NCBI GenBank assembly: GCA_030652805.1
Contig: JAUSPT010000028.1
Location: forward strand, 1 to 16,921
Direction of reading: 5' to 3'
DNA: 16,921 nucleotides
Source of the DNA: a bacterium
Lineage (GTDB): Bacteria > JAHJDO01
Part shown: positions 241 to 3,844 of the stretch, in pieces
Numbering within the stretch: the first letter of the stretch is position 1
Layout of the letters: the number at the start of each line of letters is the position of its first letter
Translations under genes and position numbers: made by a program
The notes under the pieces: generated by a model
Databases searched by the model: none
What the model saw: the letters and a program-made list of their open reading frames with translations, nothing else
Told to the model about the DNA's origin: nothing

Positions 241-1566
241 ATGAATAATAATGTTAAAAATCTATTTTTGTTCGGATTAGTCTTAGTCCTATTGTCTGGC
301 TGTACAATAGTTCATCCAATCCTAATAGAAAAACCATTTGTTTTCTCAGATGGTGAAACAAAACAAATCCCAATAAAGTCACATCCTCGCTTTGCTAAAG
401 TATATGTCAAAAACACGTATATTGGAGATGCACCATTAAAGGTATATACAGATGATGCAAAAGAATTAATTAAACATATGAAGATGGAGAAAGATGGATA
501 TTATCCTATCTATGGAAATAAAAAAAAGACGTTTAGTCAACCATCTGGAATTGAAATTTCATGGGGTATAATCCATGGATGGTTCTTTGATAAGATTCCT
601 CAGAAAAGAATAACAGCTTTGTTATCAAAGGCAGAATCCTTATATTTAGATAAAAAATATGAGGATGCAATAGCGCACTGCAAAAATGTTCTTATGATAG
701 ACCAAGACAACAAAGATGCTCAAAAATTAATGGCAAAATTGGTGGAAGAACAGAAGATGGCTCTTGAAAGACAAAGACAAAAAGAAATATCAGAATTATT
801 GGCAAAAGCAAATGCTTTGTATTCAGATGAAAAATACAATGGTTCCATAACACAGTGTAAGAGAATTCTTGTATTAGACAAATCTAATAAAGATGCTCAG
901 AAGTTAATAGTAAAGTTATTGGAAGAACAGCGTAAAGCAAAAGAATGGGCAGAGAAACAGGCAGAGATTGAACACAAGAAAAAAGAGAGGATCAGAAAGG
1001 AGAAGATAGAAAAATTGCTGGATGCAACAAAGAGAGAAGCTACTGTAAAAGAAGATTTATATGATTTTAGAAAAACTGTCTGGGGAATGAGCAGGAAGCA
1101 GGTTAAGGCAACAGAAGATAAGAAGCCTGTTTCTGAATTTGATATTGGGTTAGCTTATAAGGTTGAAATTGATGGAAAAGATTTCCTATGTGCCTATTAT
1201 TTTTTAAAAGATAAACTTTGTACTGGTATATATGTTTTTGTTGGGGAGCATTTCAATGATAATCTTTATATTGATGATTATAAAGAGCTAAAAGAAATTT
1301 TAATTAAAAAGTATGGTAGCCCAAAAACGGATTTAGGAGAAGGCTGGTTGAATGATTTACTTAAAGATGATAGAAGCCAATGGGGAACGGCTGTTAGTAT
1401 GGGGCATTTAGTATATGGGGCTACATGGGACACTCCAACAACGGAAATAAGTTTAATTTTAAGGGGTGATAATCTTAAAATTAGTTTGAAACTTGGATAT
1501 GAGAGCAAAGAATTTAAAGAAGGCGTAAGCCAAATAAATGAAAAGAAAACTTTAAAAAACTTCTAA
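241..1566 (+). CDS. Lipoprotein with PEGA-like region, two TPR-like repeats and a C-terminal domain of unknown role
   Basis: The 441-residue product begins with a lipoprotein signal: positively charged start, hydrophobic residues 8-18 and lipobox LSGC with Cys21, so it should be lipid-anchored on the outside of the inner membrane. Residues ~45-90 resemble a PEGA-type surface domain (VYVKNTYIGDAPLKVY, then KDGYYP). Two repeats of ~45 residues follow (about 126-170 and 184-226), each with the TPR pattern A-x-x-LY-x-x-x-KY-x-x-x-I and the shared phrase NKDAQKL. A highly charged, probably coiled-coil stretch spans ~229-268. The C-terminal part starts at FRKTVWGM (276-283), a motif seen at the head of small periplasmic domains of unknown function. 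An AAGGAGGG ribosome site at 226-233 supports the start. The role is unknown; scaffold or envelope-associated protein is an inference. Confidence 0.8.
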   Translation: MNNNVKNLFLFGLVLVLLSGCTIVHPILIEKPFVFSDGETKQIPIKSHPRFAKVYVKNTYIGDAPLKVYTDDAKELIKHMKMEKDGYYPIYGNKKKTFSQPSGIEISWGIIHGWFFDKIPQKRITALLSKAESLYLDKKYEDAIAHCKNVLMIDQDNKDAQKLMAKLVEEQKMALERQRQKEISELLAKANALYSDEKYNGSITQCKRILVLDKSNKDAQKLIVKLLEEQRKAKEWAEKQAEIEHKKKERIRKEKIEKLLDATKREATVKEDLYDFRKTVWGMSRKQVKATEDKKPVSEFDIGLAYKVEIDGKDFLCAYYFLKDKLCTGIYVFVGEHFNDNLYIDDYKELKEILIKKYGSPKTDLGEGWLNDLLKDDRSQWGTAVSMGHLVYGATWDTPTTEISLILRGDNLKISLKLGYESKEFKEGVSQINEKKTLKNF

Positions 1567-1725
1567 AAATTGCAACATAAATCCATTAAAAAAGATTGAA
1601 AGACATAAAAAGACAAAACAATGTCAATAATATACCCCGTTGTTCTCGTGCTGGTATTGAACGTAATTTTCTGGTTTTCAGGGATTAGTTAGTTTTGAAA
1701 AGCCAGATGAGGAAAGGCAATTTTT

Positions 1726-2154: not shown

Positions 2155-3126
2155 ATGAAACAATATAAGCAAGTAAAAACTAAAGTAAGTTTTTTTATCG
2201 AAAATCCAAAGGTAGAAGCACTAATTGCCTTTTTAATTGTCATATCAATTGTACTTTTGTCTATAGAGCTTTTTGGACTTGCAGGTAAAAACACAATCAA
2301 GTTTGCGATTGTTTGTGGGTATTATTTAAATTTTATATTTGTTATTGAGCTGCTTTTGAGAGGATATATAATTGGAAACTTCCGAAAGTTTTTCAAATAT
2401 CATCTCATGGATATATTAGCAGTGGTCCCTCCATTATTCCAAGCTTTAAGCGTAATGCGTGTTTTACGTTTAGCCAGATTAGTACGTATAATTAAGTTGG
2501 TTAGATTGGCTAAATTCGTAAAATTAGCAAAATTTATGAAAATATTTCGCATACATAAATTGGGAACTGTTGTAGATAGACACACAGGAGTCATCCGTGG
2601 GGAAGGTTTTCCTGTAGAATTAGAGGGATGTTCTCTGGATGATTATCTAAAAAAGCAGGAAAGCGATGTTTTGGAATTCAAAGCTACACTGAGAGGTGAT
2701 ATAAGAAAGGTGGGGGGAAATAATTCTTTGCAGAAGAAATTCGTGAAAACTATAGCAGCATTTTTAAATTCTAGCGGAGGCGTTCTTCTCATAGGTGTAA
2801 AGGATAATGGCGAAGTGTATGGAATTGAAAAAGATATCGAAACTCTTGGGGAATCTAAAAATAAAGATATATTTCAACAAACCTTAACGAATATTATAAA
2901 TGAGAAGTTAGATAAAGCAATTACGAGATATATAAAAATAAGATTCGAAAAAAAGGATAGTAAAATTGTTTGTATAGTAAAAATAAAGAAGAGTGGTGAG
3001 CCTTGTTTTTACCACGAAAAAAAAGAGGATCGACATGATTTTTATATAAGAATACAAAATATGACGAAAAGATTAGATACTAAAGAAGCGCATGATTATA
3101 TTGTAAAATACTGGGGAAATAAATAA
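2155..3126 (+). CDS. Voltage-sensor domain fused to a Schlafen/AlbA_2 domain
   Basis: The 323-residue product has two parts. Residues ~1-136 (counted from the TTG at 2152) look like the S1-S4 voltage sensor of the ion-transport family: S1 23-41, S2 51-70 with FVIELLLR (Glu66, Arg70), S3 beginning at Asp87 (DILAVVPP), and an S4 with 12 basic residues at every third position from Arg103 to Lys136. No S5, pore loop or S6 follows. After a short linker, residues ~160-315 form an AlbA_2 domain: VLEFKATL (Glu175), a basic helix, FLNSSGGVLLIGVKDNG (204-220) and the C-terminal FYIR...KRL strand. AlbA_2 domains occur in Schlafen-type nucleases and in transcription regulators. Start: ATG 2155 is preferred over the adjacent TTG 2152; no clear ribosome site is visible, so coupling to the upstream gene is likely. 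Membrane-tethered nuclease or regulator is an inference. Confidence 0.78.
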   Translation: MKQYKQVKTKVSFFIENPKVEALIAFLIVISIVLLSIELFGLAGKNTIKFAIVCGYYLNFIFVIELLLRGYIIGNFRKFFKYHLMDILAVVPPLFQALSVMRVLRLARLVRIIKLVRLAKFVKLAKFMKIFRIHKLGTVVDRHTGVIRGEGFPVELEGCSLDDYLKKQESDVLEFKATLRGDIRKVGGNNSLQKKFVKTIAAFLNSSGGVLLIGVKDNGEVYGIEKDIETLGESKNKDIFQQTLTNIINEKLDKAITRYIKIRFEKKDSKIVCIVKIKKSGEPCFYHEKKEDRHDFYIRIQNMTKRLDTKEAHDYIVKYWGNK

Positions 3127-3232: not shown

Positions 3233-3308
3233 AGGGATATTCAAACGGGCAGACGCAAGGGCTGCCCCTACAATAACCGCCAGCTAAAGCAGGCGGTTGC
3301 GGTGGAGG
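3233..3308 (+). repeat. Hairpin-rich intergenic repeat, copy A
   Basis: Copy A starts at AGGGATATTCAAACGGGCAG and ends at GGTGGAGG. It holds one hairpin of the GGGCAG...CTGCCC type and a second one with arms AACCGCC / GGCGGTT. It matches copy B (3768-3844) except for two substitutions and one single-base indel. The two copies are direct repeats and bracket the toxin relic and the antitoxin gene. The stretch just before it (about 3198-3230, GACGAGATTCCTTCGCAATG) also looks like a dispersed repeat. Confidence 0.85.
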
Positions 3309-3383: not shown

Positions 3384-3523
3384 GGAATTAAATGTATTGA
3401 CAGTATGCTTATATTGTCCCATATGTTCAAAACAAAGAGGAGATGTTCTTTAGAACTATTATCCCAAGTAGAAAAGCAACGCAAAAGTATTTGAAAGGAG
3501 TTGATAAAGATGAAATTGGATAA
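3384..3523 (+). pseudogene. Relic of a BrnT-like toxin gene, C-terminal part only
   Basis: In the frame ending at TAA 3521-3523, the codons from 3404 read YAYIVPYVQNKEEMFFRTII followed by PSRKATQKYLKG. This resembles the C-terminus of small BrnT-like type II toxins (IIPSRKATKKYL-type endings; recognised from memory). Upstream, a further piece (GIKCID, 3384-3401) continues the match only after a one-base shift at about 3402, and nothing toxin-like precedes it. About half of a normal ~90-residue toxin is therefore missing and the remainder is frameshifted. The relic overlaps the start of the antitoxin by 14 bases, the usual toxin-then-antitoxin order. A short in-frame ATG at 3443 could at most make 26 residues. 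Confidence 0.6.
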
Positions 3524-3764
3524 AGAGGAAAGAGAGATATTAAAATCATACGAAAGTGGAGAATGGAAATCAGTAAAAAAACTTGATTCCATAAAAAAGA
3601 AACACATGGGATATGCTAAAGCTATGTTAAAAAAAGATAAGCGTCTGAATATCAGAATATCATCACGTGATTTAGAAGAAGTTCAAAGAATTGCTGTAGG
3701 TGAAGGTATTCCATATCAAACATTAGTTTCAAGCGTAATTCATAAATATGTTACAAGACATTAA
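3510..3764 (+). CDS. CopG/BrnA-type antitoxin, apparently orphaned
   Basis: The 84-residue protein starts MKLDKEEREILKSYESGEW and has KKDKRLNIRIS (41-51) followed by DLEEVQRIA and IPYQTLVSSVIHKYV. That is a C-terminal ribbon-helix-helix domain of the CopG-antitoxin type (Pfam CopG_antitoxin, by memory). It would bind DNA as a dimer and repress its own operon, while the N-terminal half would wrap the toxin. The start is placed at ATG 3510 rather than TTG 3501, because GAAAGGAG at 3493-3500 leaves a nine-base spacer. The reading frame is intact although its upstream toxin is truncated, so it may persist as an orphan antitoxin or regulator. Stop and repeat copy B are three bases apart. Confidence 0.75.
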   Translation: MKLDKEEREILKSYESGEWKSVKKLDSIKKKHMGYAKAMLKKDKRLNIRISSRDLEEVQRIAVGEGIPYQTLVSSVIHKYVTRH

Positions 3765-3767
3765 ATT

Positions 3768-3844
3768 AGGGATATTCAAACGGGCAGCCGCAAGGGCTGC
3801 CCCTACAGATAACCGCCAGCTAAAGCAGGCGGTTGAGGTGGAGG
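3768..3844 (+). repeat. Hairpin-rich intergenic repeat, copy B
   Basis: This is the second copy of the unit at 3233-3308, 74 of 77 positions identical by hand alignment, in the same orientation. It contains GGGCAGCC-GCAA-GGGCTGCCC and the AACCGCC/GGCGGTT dyad. It is followed at ~3857-3878 by another dyad (CCCTCTT...AAGAGAGGG) of the dispersed-repeat type. Together they fill the 125 bases between the antitoxin gene and the 3' end of dus. Confidence 0.85.

What the first reader, a model, noticed from the sequence alone, without database searches (positions are those of the whole stretch)
2155..3126. Voltage-sensor domain wired directly to a Schlafen/AlbA_2 domain, with no pore
Seen: four hydrophobic segments with FVIELLLR in S2 and Asp at the head of S3, then a cationic S4, then an AlbA_2 core (VLEFK; SSGGVLLIGVKDNG). 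Known: voltage sensors are found with channel pores, with phosphatases (VSP) or alone (Hv1); AlbA_2 domains are in Schlafen nucleases and regulators. Inference: membrane depolarisation could switch a nuclease or nucleic-acid-binding domain held at the membrane, an attractive architecture for anti-phage or stress response.
Basis: partly seen in the sequence, partly recalled or inferred. Interest (0 to 1): 0.8.

Follow-up and report, generated by a model that had tools for sequence, protein, structure and literature searches.

The report
Voltage sensor fused to Schlafen-type domain
A bacterium encodes a protein that joins the voltage-sensing half of an ion channel, without the channel's pore, to a domain related to RNA-cutting immune enzymes, so membrane voltage may directly control an attack on nucleic acids; the architecture is solid, the function untested.

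Summary
ATG 2155..3126 (+) encodes 323 residues: a voltage-sensor domain (VSD; Pfam Ion_trans S1-S4 only, above cut-off; canonical F62/E65/D86 charge-transfer centre; S4 with 12 Lys/Arg at exact three-residue spacing) followed directly by a Schlafen-type AlbA_2 domain (Pfam E 4e-19; modelled fold matches SLFN11/13/14 and SAMD9 tRNase; the E-E-D acids that are catalytic in SLFN13 are present). No S5-pore-S6. An 87%-identical orthologue in a second species, under purifying selection in both halves, rules out an assembly accident. Nothing else with this architecture turned up in about 770 genomes searched in full, an AlbA_2-motif scan of 84,980 species, phages or plasmids. The same AlbA_2 subfamily is a swappable module elsewhere: on receiver domains beside TPR-histidine kinases, periplasmic solute-binding sensors, membrane bundles, GmrSD and Type I proteins. 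Best reading: one-component, voltage-controlled effector, with S4 movement relayed through a long cationic helix to a probable RNase or nucleic-acid-binding domain. Voltage response, cleavage and direction of switching are inferred. A defence-island setting was tested and not found. A 2023 review states that all prokaryotic VSDs carry a pore; this is an exception.

The parts
2155..3126 (+). CDS of the VSD-AlbA_2 protein, 323 aa (TTG at 2152 is a possible start)
   Evidence: orthologue L003/L040, 87% identity over 1-323
2158..2199 (+). N-terminal helix (S0-like), residues 2-15
   Evidence: AF2 models
2206..2274 (+). S1, residues 18-40
   Evidence: AF2 VSD model, Pfam Ion_trans
2287..2373 (+). 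S2, residues 45-73, with charge-transfer residues F62 (2338-2340) and E65 (2347-2349)
2380..2424 (+). S3, residues 76-90, with D86 (2410-2412)
2455..2583 (+). S4 and its cytoplasmic extension, residues 101-143, one predicted helix; K/R at 102,105,108,111,114,117,120,123,126,129,132,135
   Evidence: low model confidence beyond about residue 120
2584..2658 (+). linker, residues 144-168
   Evidence: pLDDT low at 131-149, rising from about 150
2659..3075 (+). SLFN_AlbA_2 domain, residues 169-307; E169 (2659-2661), E174 (2674-2676), D217 (2803-2805) match SLFN13 E205/E210/D248
   Evidence: Pfam; PDB profile match; AF2 pLDDT 87-97 over most of it with SLFN/SAMD9 fold matches; invariant columns; SLFN13 mutants, PMC5862951
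1726..2136 (+). co-directional upstream gene, 136 aa: LITAF-like zinc ribbon with a hydrophobic hairpin plus a second zinc ribbon; 18 nt before the VSD gene; adjacent in both species
241..1566 (+). upstream gene, 441 aa, lipoprotein-like start and TPR repeats; related gene upstream of the zinc-ribbon gene in congener G003 (54% over 136 aa), only weak similarity in G001
3501..3764 (+). lone CopG/BrnA-type antitoxin gene downstream, probably not part of the system
   Evidence: Pfam CopG_antitoxin 29.0 bits, cut-off 28; absent from the orthologous locus

Best explanation
A one-component, voltage-controlled effector. The pore-less S1-S4 voltage sensor sits in the cytoplasmic membrane with both ends inside; when membrane potential collapses, S4 moves outward through the F62/E65/D86 centre and pulls on an unusually long cationic helix that continues into the cytoplasm, changing the position, pairing or access of the attached Schlafen-type AlbA_2 domain, which then cleaves (or binds) tRNA/rRNA or other nucleic acid and slows or arrests the cell. 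It works like a voltage-sensing phosphatase whose enzyme has been replaced by a Schlafen-type domain. Shown: both domains, their order, absence of a pore, conservation of charge-transfer residues, S4 charges and the E-E-D acids, selection on both halves, and use of the same AlbA_2 module behind other sensor domains. Inferred: that S4 responds to voltage, that the AlbA_2 domain cuts RNA, that depolarisation is the activating direction, that it acts as a dimer, and that the purpose is stress or phage response.
For: Domains and order. VSD by sequence profile (PDB Nav/Cav/Kv chains E 1e-24 to 1e-14) and by model: the 50 listed Foldseek hits are voltage-sensor proteins, first the isolated KvAP VSD, probability 1.00; Ci-VSP VSD Z 10.4, rmsd 3.4 over 110 residues. 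AlbA_2 by profile (SLFN14/11/8/12/5, E 7e-10 to 6e-7) and model (SAMD9 tRNase Z 12.2, SLFN11/13/14 Z about 10-11). Acids E169/E174/D217 invariant in 47 aligned modules and matching residues whose mutation abolished or reduced SLFN13 activity (PMC5862951). Orthologue 87%, dN/dS 0.26 (VSD) and 0.22 (AlbA_2). Module swapping: of 78 relatives, Response_reg 14, GmrSD_N 12, SBP_bac_3 10, DUF499 4, methyltransferases 3; ten of ten genes tested upstream of receiver-AlbA_2 genes are TPR-HATPase_c kinases.
Against: Only two genomes of one genus carry it; three congeners lack it. No defence-gene neighbours. The acids are shared by ordinary AlbA_2 proteins, so they do not prove nuclease activity. VSD model confidence is modest (pLDDT 66; Foldseek E 0.03 at best). 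Mammalian Schlafen nuclease cores have two AlbA_2 lobes; this protein has one and would have to pair.
Confidence: 0.5

Rival explanations
1. Voltage- or stress-controlled regulator without cleavage: the AlbA_2 domain binds DNA or RNA and alters transcription or translation, as the older view of AlbA_2 regulators would have it.
For: Related AlbA_2 modules sit on response-regulator receiver domains next to histidine kinases, the usual place of regulators; the own genome has ordinary AlbA_2 proteins of 457-459 aa of the kind annotated as ATP-binding or RecG-related regulators.
Against: The module also sits on restriction-type proteins (GmrSD, HsdR, methyltransferases, DUF499), and its closest solved relatives include tRNases (SLFN13, SLFN14, SAMD9 tRNase domain).
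Confidence: 0.25
2. The VSD is only a membrane anchor or senses something else (stretch, lipid, temperature, pH); AlbA_2 is not under voltage control.
For: Related AlbA_2 proteins have non-VSD membrane domains of two or six helices, so membrane attachment alone may be what is selected.
Against: An anchor need not keep F62/E65/D86 and twelve S4 charges; every charged S4 position is basic in the orthologue and the VSD is under purifying selection.
Confidence: 0.2
3. The VSD conducts protons as in Hv1 and the AlbA_2 domain is a regulator or passenger.
For: Hv1 is a pore-less VSD, and the model superposes on the Hv1 chimera 3wkv (Z 10.4).
Against: No Trp in S4, which is totally conserved in eukaryotic Hv1 and absent from prokaryotic VSDs (PMC10377628); S1 has only the Kv-type acid near its outer end.
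Confidence: 0.04
4. Assembly chimera or dying gene.
For: Both genomes are fragmented assemblies; only two copies are known.
Against: Same fusion in two species at 87% identity with dN/dS 0.22, open frame and the same zinc-ribbon neighbour.
Confidence: 0.01

Closest known systems
Voltage-sensing phosphatase (Ci-VSP / TPTE)
   Same: Pore-less S1-S4 sensor whose S4 runs through a basic linker into one cytosolic enzyme domain; the VSD model superposes on the Ci-VSP VSD (4g80 Z 10.4; 4g7v TM 0.58/0.61)
   Different: No phosphatase/PTEN or C2 domain; the output is an AlbA_2 nucleic-acid domain; bacterial; much longer S4 charge ladder
Bacterial Kv-type channels with TrkA/RCK-like tails (e.g. L034, L036, L038)
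   Same: Closest VSD sequences (32-33% identity) with the same S2/S3/S4 motifs
   Different: They have S5-pore-S6; this protein has none
Schlafen nucleases (SLFN11/13/14) and SAMD9 tRNase domain
   Same: AlbA_2 fold and, for the Schlafens, the E-E-D acids
   Different: One AlbA_2 lobe instead of the two-lobed Schlafen core; membrane-tethered; activity untested
Sensor-AlbA_2 proteins: TPR kinase plus receiver-AlbA_2, SBP_bac_3-TM-AlbA_2, dCache-like and 2TM/6TM-AlbA_2
   Same: Same C-terminal AlbA_2 subfamily, about 30-46% identity
   Different: Input is a receiver, periplasmic or unknown membrane domain, not a voltage sensor
GmrSD_N (DUF262)-AlbA_2 proteins
   Same: Closest AlbA_2 relative (L041, 47%; tree support 0.83)
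   Different: Restriction-type protein without membrane segments

Membership tests
Voltage-sensor domain superfamily | Four-helix S1-S4 bundle homologous to Kv/Nav/Cav sensors | tested here: met
   Pfam Ion_trans profile 4-113 above cut-off; PDB profile hits; model matches
Voltage-sensor domain superfamily | Charge-transfer centre (F and E in S2, D in S3) and regularly spaced S4 Arg/Lys | tested here: met
   F62, E65, D86, K/R 102-135
Voltage-sensor domain superfamily | Gating charge movement with voltage | not testable with these tools
   needs electrophysiology or fluorometry
Voltage-gated cation channel | S5-pore loop-S6 with selectivity filter | tested here: not met
   no filter motif or S5/S6 pair after S4; own genome has no other Ion_trans protein
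Hv1 proton channel | Conserved S4 tryptophan | tested here: not met
   no Trp in residues 98-143; feature from PMC10377628
Hv1 proton channel | Selectivity-filter acid in S1 (D112-type) | tested here: inconclusive
   E38 near the outer end of S1 aligns with acids of ordinary Kv-type VSDs
Voltage-sensing phosphatase | PTEN-like phosphatase domain after the VSD | tested here: not met
   Pfam gives SLFN_AlbA_2 and no phosphatase
SLFN_AlbA_2 (PF04326) | Profile match above curated cut-off and AlbA_2 fold | tested here: met
   69.8 vs 25.3 bits; AF2 fold matches
Schlafen nuclease | E-E-D carboxylate triad | tested here: met
   E169, E174, D217 aligned to SLFN chains and invariant; also present in ordinary AlbA_2 proteins
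Schlafen nuclease | Two AlbA_2 lobes in one polypeptide | tested here: not met
   single domain, residues 169-307
Schlafen nuclease | tRNA/rRNA cleavage | not testable with these tools
   needs biochemistry
Anti-phage defence system | Location among defence genes | tested here: not met
   flanks are Dus, Maf, RlmB, CorA, DnaJ, MiaB and UvrB-type genes and a lone CopG antitoxin (Dus, CorA and CopG by Pfam; the rest read from the translations); PADLOC gives only a partial pAgo-model match to the AlbA_2 region
Anti-phage defence system | Protection against phage | not testable with these tools
   needs infection assays in laboratory strains

The most novel reading that the evidence does not exclude
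A membrane-potential-gated nucleic-acid enzyme: the first prokaryotic voltage sensor known to work without a pore, coupling depolarisation directly, in one protein, to RNA cleavage and growth arrest. It would be one of several pore-less bacterial VSD architectures, since three other proteins found here (L177, L190, L205) join VSDs to extracytoplasmic, sensor-like regions.
Probability: 0.35. Interest if true: 0.92.

Novelty: new variant of a known kind. Interest (0 to 1): 0.73.

Why it matters
The voltage sensors outside channels that a 2024 review lists are eukaryotic (VSP, Hv1, SLC9C1, TMEM266; PMC13095418), and a 2023 survey states that all prokaryotic voltage-sensing domains come with a pore (PMC10377628). 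A bacterial VSD wired to a Schlafen-type domain breaks that rule and offers a concrete answer to how a cell could turn collapse of membrane potential, a common consequence of phage entry, toxins or energy loss, straight into a translational response. It also places AlbA_2 among general-purpose outputs of bacterial sensors, which gives many unannotated proteins a testable role.

Tried and rejected
Viral contigs: the protein itself, the VSD alignment and the AlbA_2 alignment found no VSD-AlbA_2 (three AlbA_2-only proteins). Plasmids: nine records, AlbA_2 part only. Phages: no match. Genomes: one AlbA_2-motif scan of 84,980 species, 523 relatives, best 80 inspected, only L040 has a VSD; about 770 distinct genomes searched with the whole protein gave only the same-genus orthologue. 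Limits: the scan used one motif and kept only the best 80, and metagenomes could not be scanned. The first structure model (whole protein) was too thin for the VSD (two rows), so the VSD was modelled alone with ten VSD relatives from viral contigs. Defence context: PADLOC and Pfam on neighbours gave nothing diagnostic in the window; a Fic gene lies downstream in the other species only. A promoter scan gave no signal above chance (10 found, 7.0 +/- 2.9 expected). Literature: no paper joins voltage-sensing domain with Schlafen and AlbA. [quoted passage not shown]

Full report
WHAT IS THERE. The frame 2155..3126 (+) encodes 323 residues. Pfam finds Ion_trans at 20-120, covering only profile positions 4-113 of 241 (S1-S4), and SLFN_AlbA_2 at 169-307, both above their curated cut-offs. 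Aligned with bacterial Kv-type channels, the invariant residues are those that define a voltage sensor: F62 and E65 in S2, D86 in S3, R102, R105 and R108 in S4. S4 is extreme: twelve Lys/Arg at exact three-residue spacing, R102 to K135. None of 20,000 shuffles of the protein reaches twelve, and among 84 VSDs collected the other values run from 2 to 11, apart from the orthologue's own 12.

NO PORE. As a control I collected VSDs from 385 genomes spread over the domain and read the frames behind them. 79 of the 84 have two hydrophobic segments after S4, and in 75 of these the spacing is 45-95 residues (median 62), as for S5-pore-S6. The remaining five are the two VSD-AlbA_2 proteins and three frames cut by contig ends. 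In the VSD-AlbA_2 proteins the only hydrophobic stretch after S4 is the AlbA_2 core. The own genus has no other Ion_trans protein in the genomes held, so no separate channel subunit of that family is in sight.

STRUCTURE. The whole-protein AF2 model has the AlbA_2 domain at pLDDT 87-97 over most of its length and it matches DIP2311 (Z 13.6), SAMD9 DNA-binding/tRNase domain (Z 12.7 and 12.2) and SLFN11/13/14 (Z about 10-11). The VSD alone, modelled with ten channel VSDs, is modest (pLDDT 66) but gives helices 2-15, 18-40, 45-73, 76-90 and 101-143. The 50 listed Foldseek matches are voltage-sensor proteins, the first being the isolated KvAP VSD, though E-values stay above 0.03. The second look gives Ci-VSP VSD Z 10.4, rmsd 3.4 over 110 residues; for helical bundles such Z values alone are not proof, but the sequence profile independently reaches Nav/Cav/Kv chains at E 1e-24 to 1e-14.

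CATALYTIC POTENTIAL. In alignments to SLFN11 and SLFN13 (the 5yd0 chain, named Schlafen 8 in the sequence file) E169, E174 and D217 fall on the E, E and D of the active site. In rat SLFN13 these are E205, E210 and D248; E205A and E210A were inactive (PMC5862951). E169, E174, K176 and D217 are invariant in 47 aligned modules. Caution: ordinary AlbA_2 proteins share the motif, so this shows potential, not activity.

CONSERVATION. A second species of the genus (G001, the same record as DAOVKY010000017.1, isolate CSMAG_1431, by matching contig position and length) has an 87% identical full-length orthologue. dN/dS is 0.22 overall, 0.26 in the VSD and 0.22 in AlbA_2; every S4 charge position is basic in both. 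Three congeners lack it. The phylum holds only five genomes here, all one genus.

NEIGHBOURS. Directly upstream (18 nt) lies a 136-aa gene with a LITAF-like zinc ribbon split by a hydrophobic hairpin and a second zinc ribbon. It is adjacent in the other species too, with a nearly identical C-terminal tail. In congener G003 the zinc-ribbon gene and a related TPR gene occur without the VSD gene; the next gene there is an unrelated 174-aa protein without Pfam or PADLOC match that contains an R-x4-H motif (RNGFMH), a possible HEPN-type signature by eye only. A slot with swappable downstream genes is therefore possible but rests on one case. Downstream flanks differ between species (a lone CopG antitoxin here, a Fic gene there), and the rest of the window is housekeeping. 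This is not a defence island.

WHAT ALBA_2 DOES ELSEWHERE. The subfamily is a mobile module, usually C-terminal. Of 78 relatives scanned, 14 carry a response-regulator receiver, 12 GmrSD_N, 10 SBP_bac_3, 4 DUF499, 3 methyltransferases and 1 HsdR. Others have two or six membrane segments. All ten upstream genes of receiver-AlbA_2 genes that I tested are TPR-HATPase_c kinases: a dedicated two-component system with AlbA_2 as output. In the tree the VSD-AlbA_2 module groups with a GmrSD-type protein (L041, 47% identity, support 0.83). So a sensor-to-AlbA_2 wiring is indicated by comparative genomics, and the VSD is a new input to it.

MECHANISM. Topology follows from an even number of membrane helices with a basic N-terminus and a cytosolic nucleic-acid domain. 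The S4 ladder is longer than the membrane is thick, so its second half should run in the cytoplasm or along the membrane surface and connect to AlbA_2, the place where Ci-VSP has its basic coupling linker (own knowledge). I therefore favour voltage control of AlbA_2 position or pairing. Direction, substrate and purpose are not shown. I put about 0.5 on the full statement and 0.97 on the architecture alone.

KNOWN OR NEW. VSD-containing non-channels listed in a 2024 review are SLC9C1, VSP, Hv1 and TMEM266 (PMC13095418). A 2023 review states that all prokaryotic VSDs are accompanied by a pore (PMC10377628). No paper in the library joins voltage-sensing domain with Schlafen and AlbA. Anti-phage roles of bacterial Schlafens are reported in a preprint cited by PMC12839542 that I could not read. 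Both parts are known kinds; their combination is new as far as I could test, hence 'new variant of a known kind'.

Noticed in passing
L177 (G273:C254, 697 aa), L190 (G136:C69, 361 aa), L205 (G307:C1, 369 aa): Bacterial VSDs (Pfam Ion_trans) followed by a membrane helix, a roughly 100-210-aa presumed extracytoplasmic region, a second helix and a cytoplasmic tail, with no selectivity filter: a second kind of pore-less prokaryotic VSD, resembling chemosensory receptors.
   Followed up: partly
L204 (G351:C450, 1623-aa frame, VSD-like at 593-703): VSD-like match inside a very large protein without a normal pore spacing; weak match (E 3e-8), not resolved.
   Followed up: no
L043, L056, L064, L070, L087, L090, L094, L095, L110, L118: Two-component systems of a TPR-HATPase_c kinase and a receiver-AlbA_2 protein in cyanobacteria and Beggiatoa relatives: AlbA_2 as a response-regulator output.
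   Followed up: partly
L050, L054, L057, L061, L065, L066, L073, L075, L089, L114: Periplasmic SBP_bac_3-type domain, membrane helix, AlbA_2: one-component sensors, mostly Bacteroidota (class assigned by length and helix pattern, four read in full).
   Followed up: partly
L208 (G003:C127): zinc-ribbon gene 1213-1719 (-), next gene 636-1160 (-): The same zinc-ribbon gene (and a TPR gene) is followed by an unrelated 174-aa protein with an R-x4-H motif in place of VSD-AlbA_2; possible slot with swappable downstream genes.
   Followed up: partly
window 3233-3308 and 3768-3844: A roughly 76-bp direct repeat (97-98% identical) flanks the lone CopG/BrnA-type antitoxin gene 3501-3764; no intact toxin gene is seen beside it.
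   Followed up: no
window residues 168-255 of the protein vs PADLOC pAgo model PDLC02394: The AlbA_2 region matches positions 29-113 of a long pAgo model (E 3.7e-5), suggesting that some pAgo proteins carry an N-terminal AlbA_2 domain.
   Followed up: no
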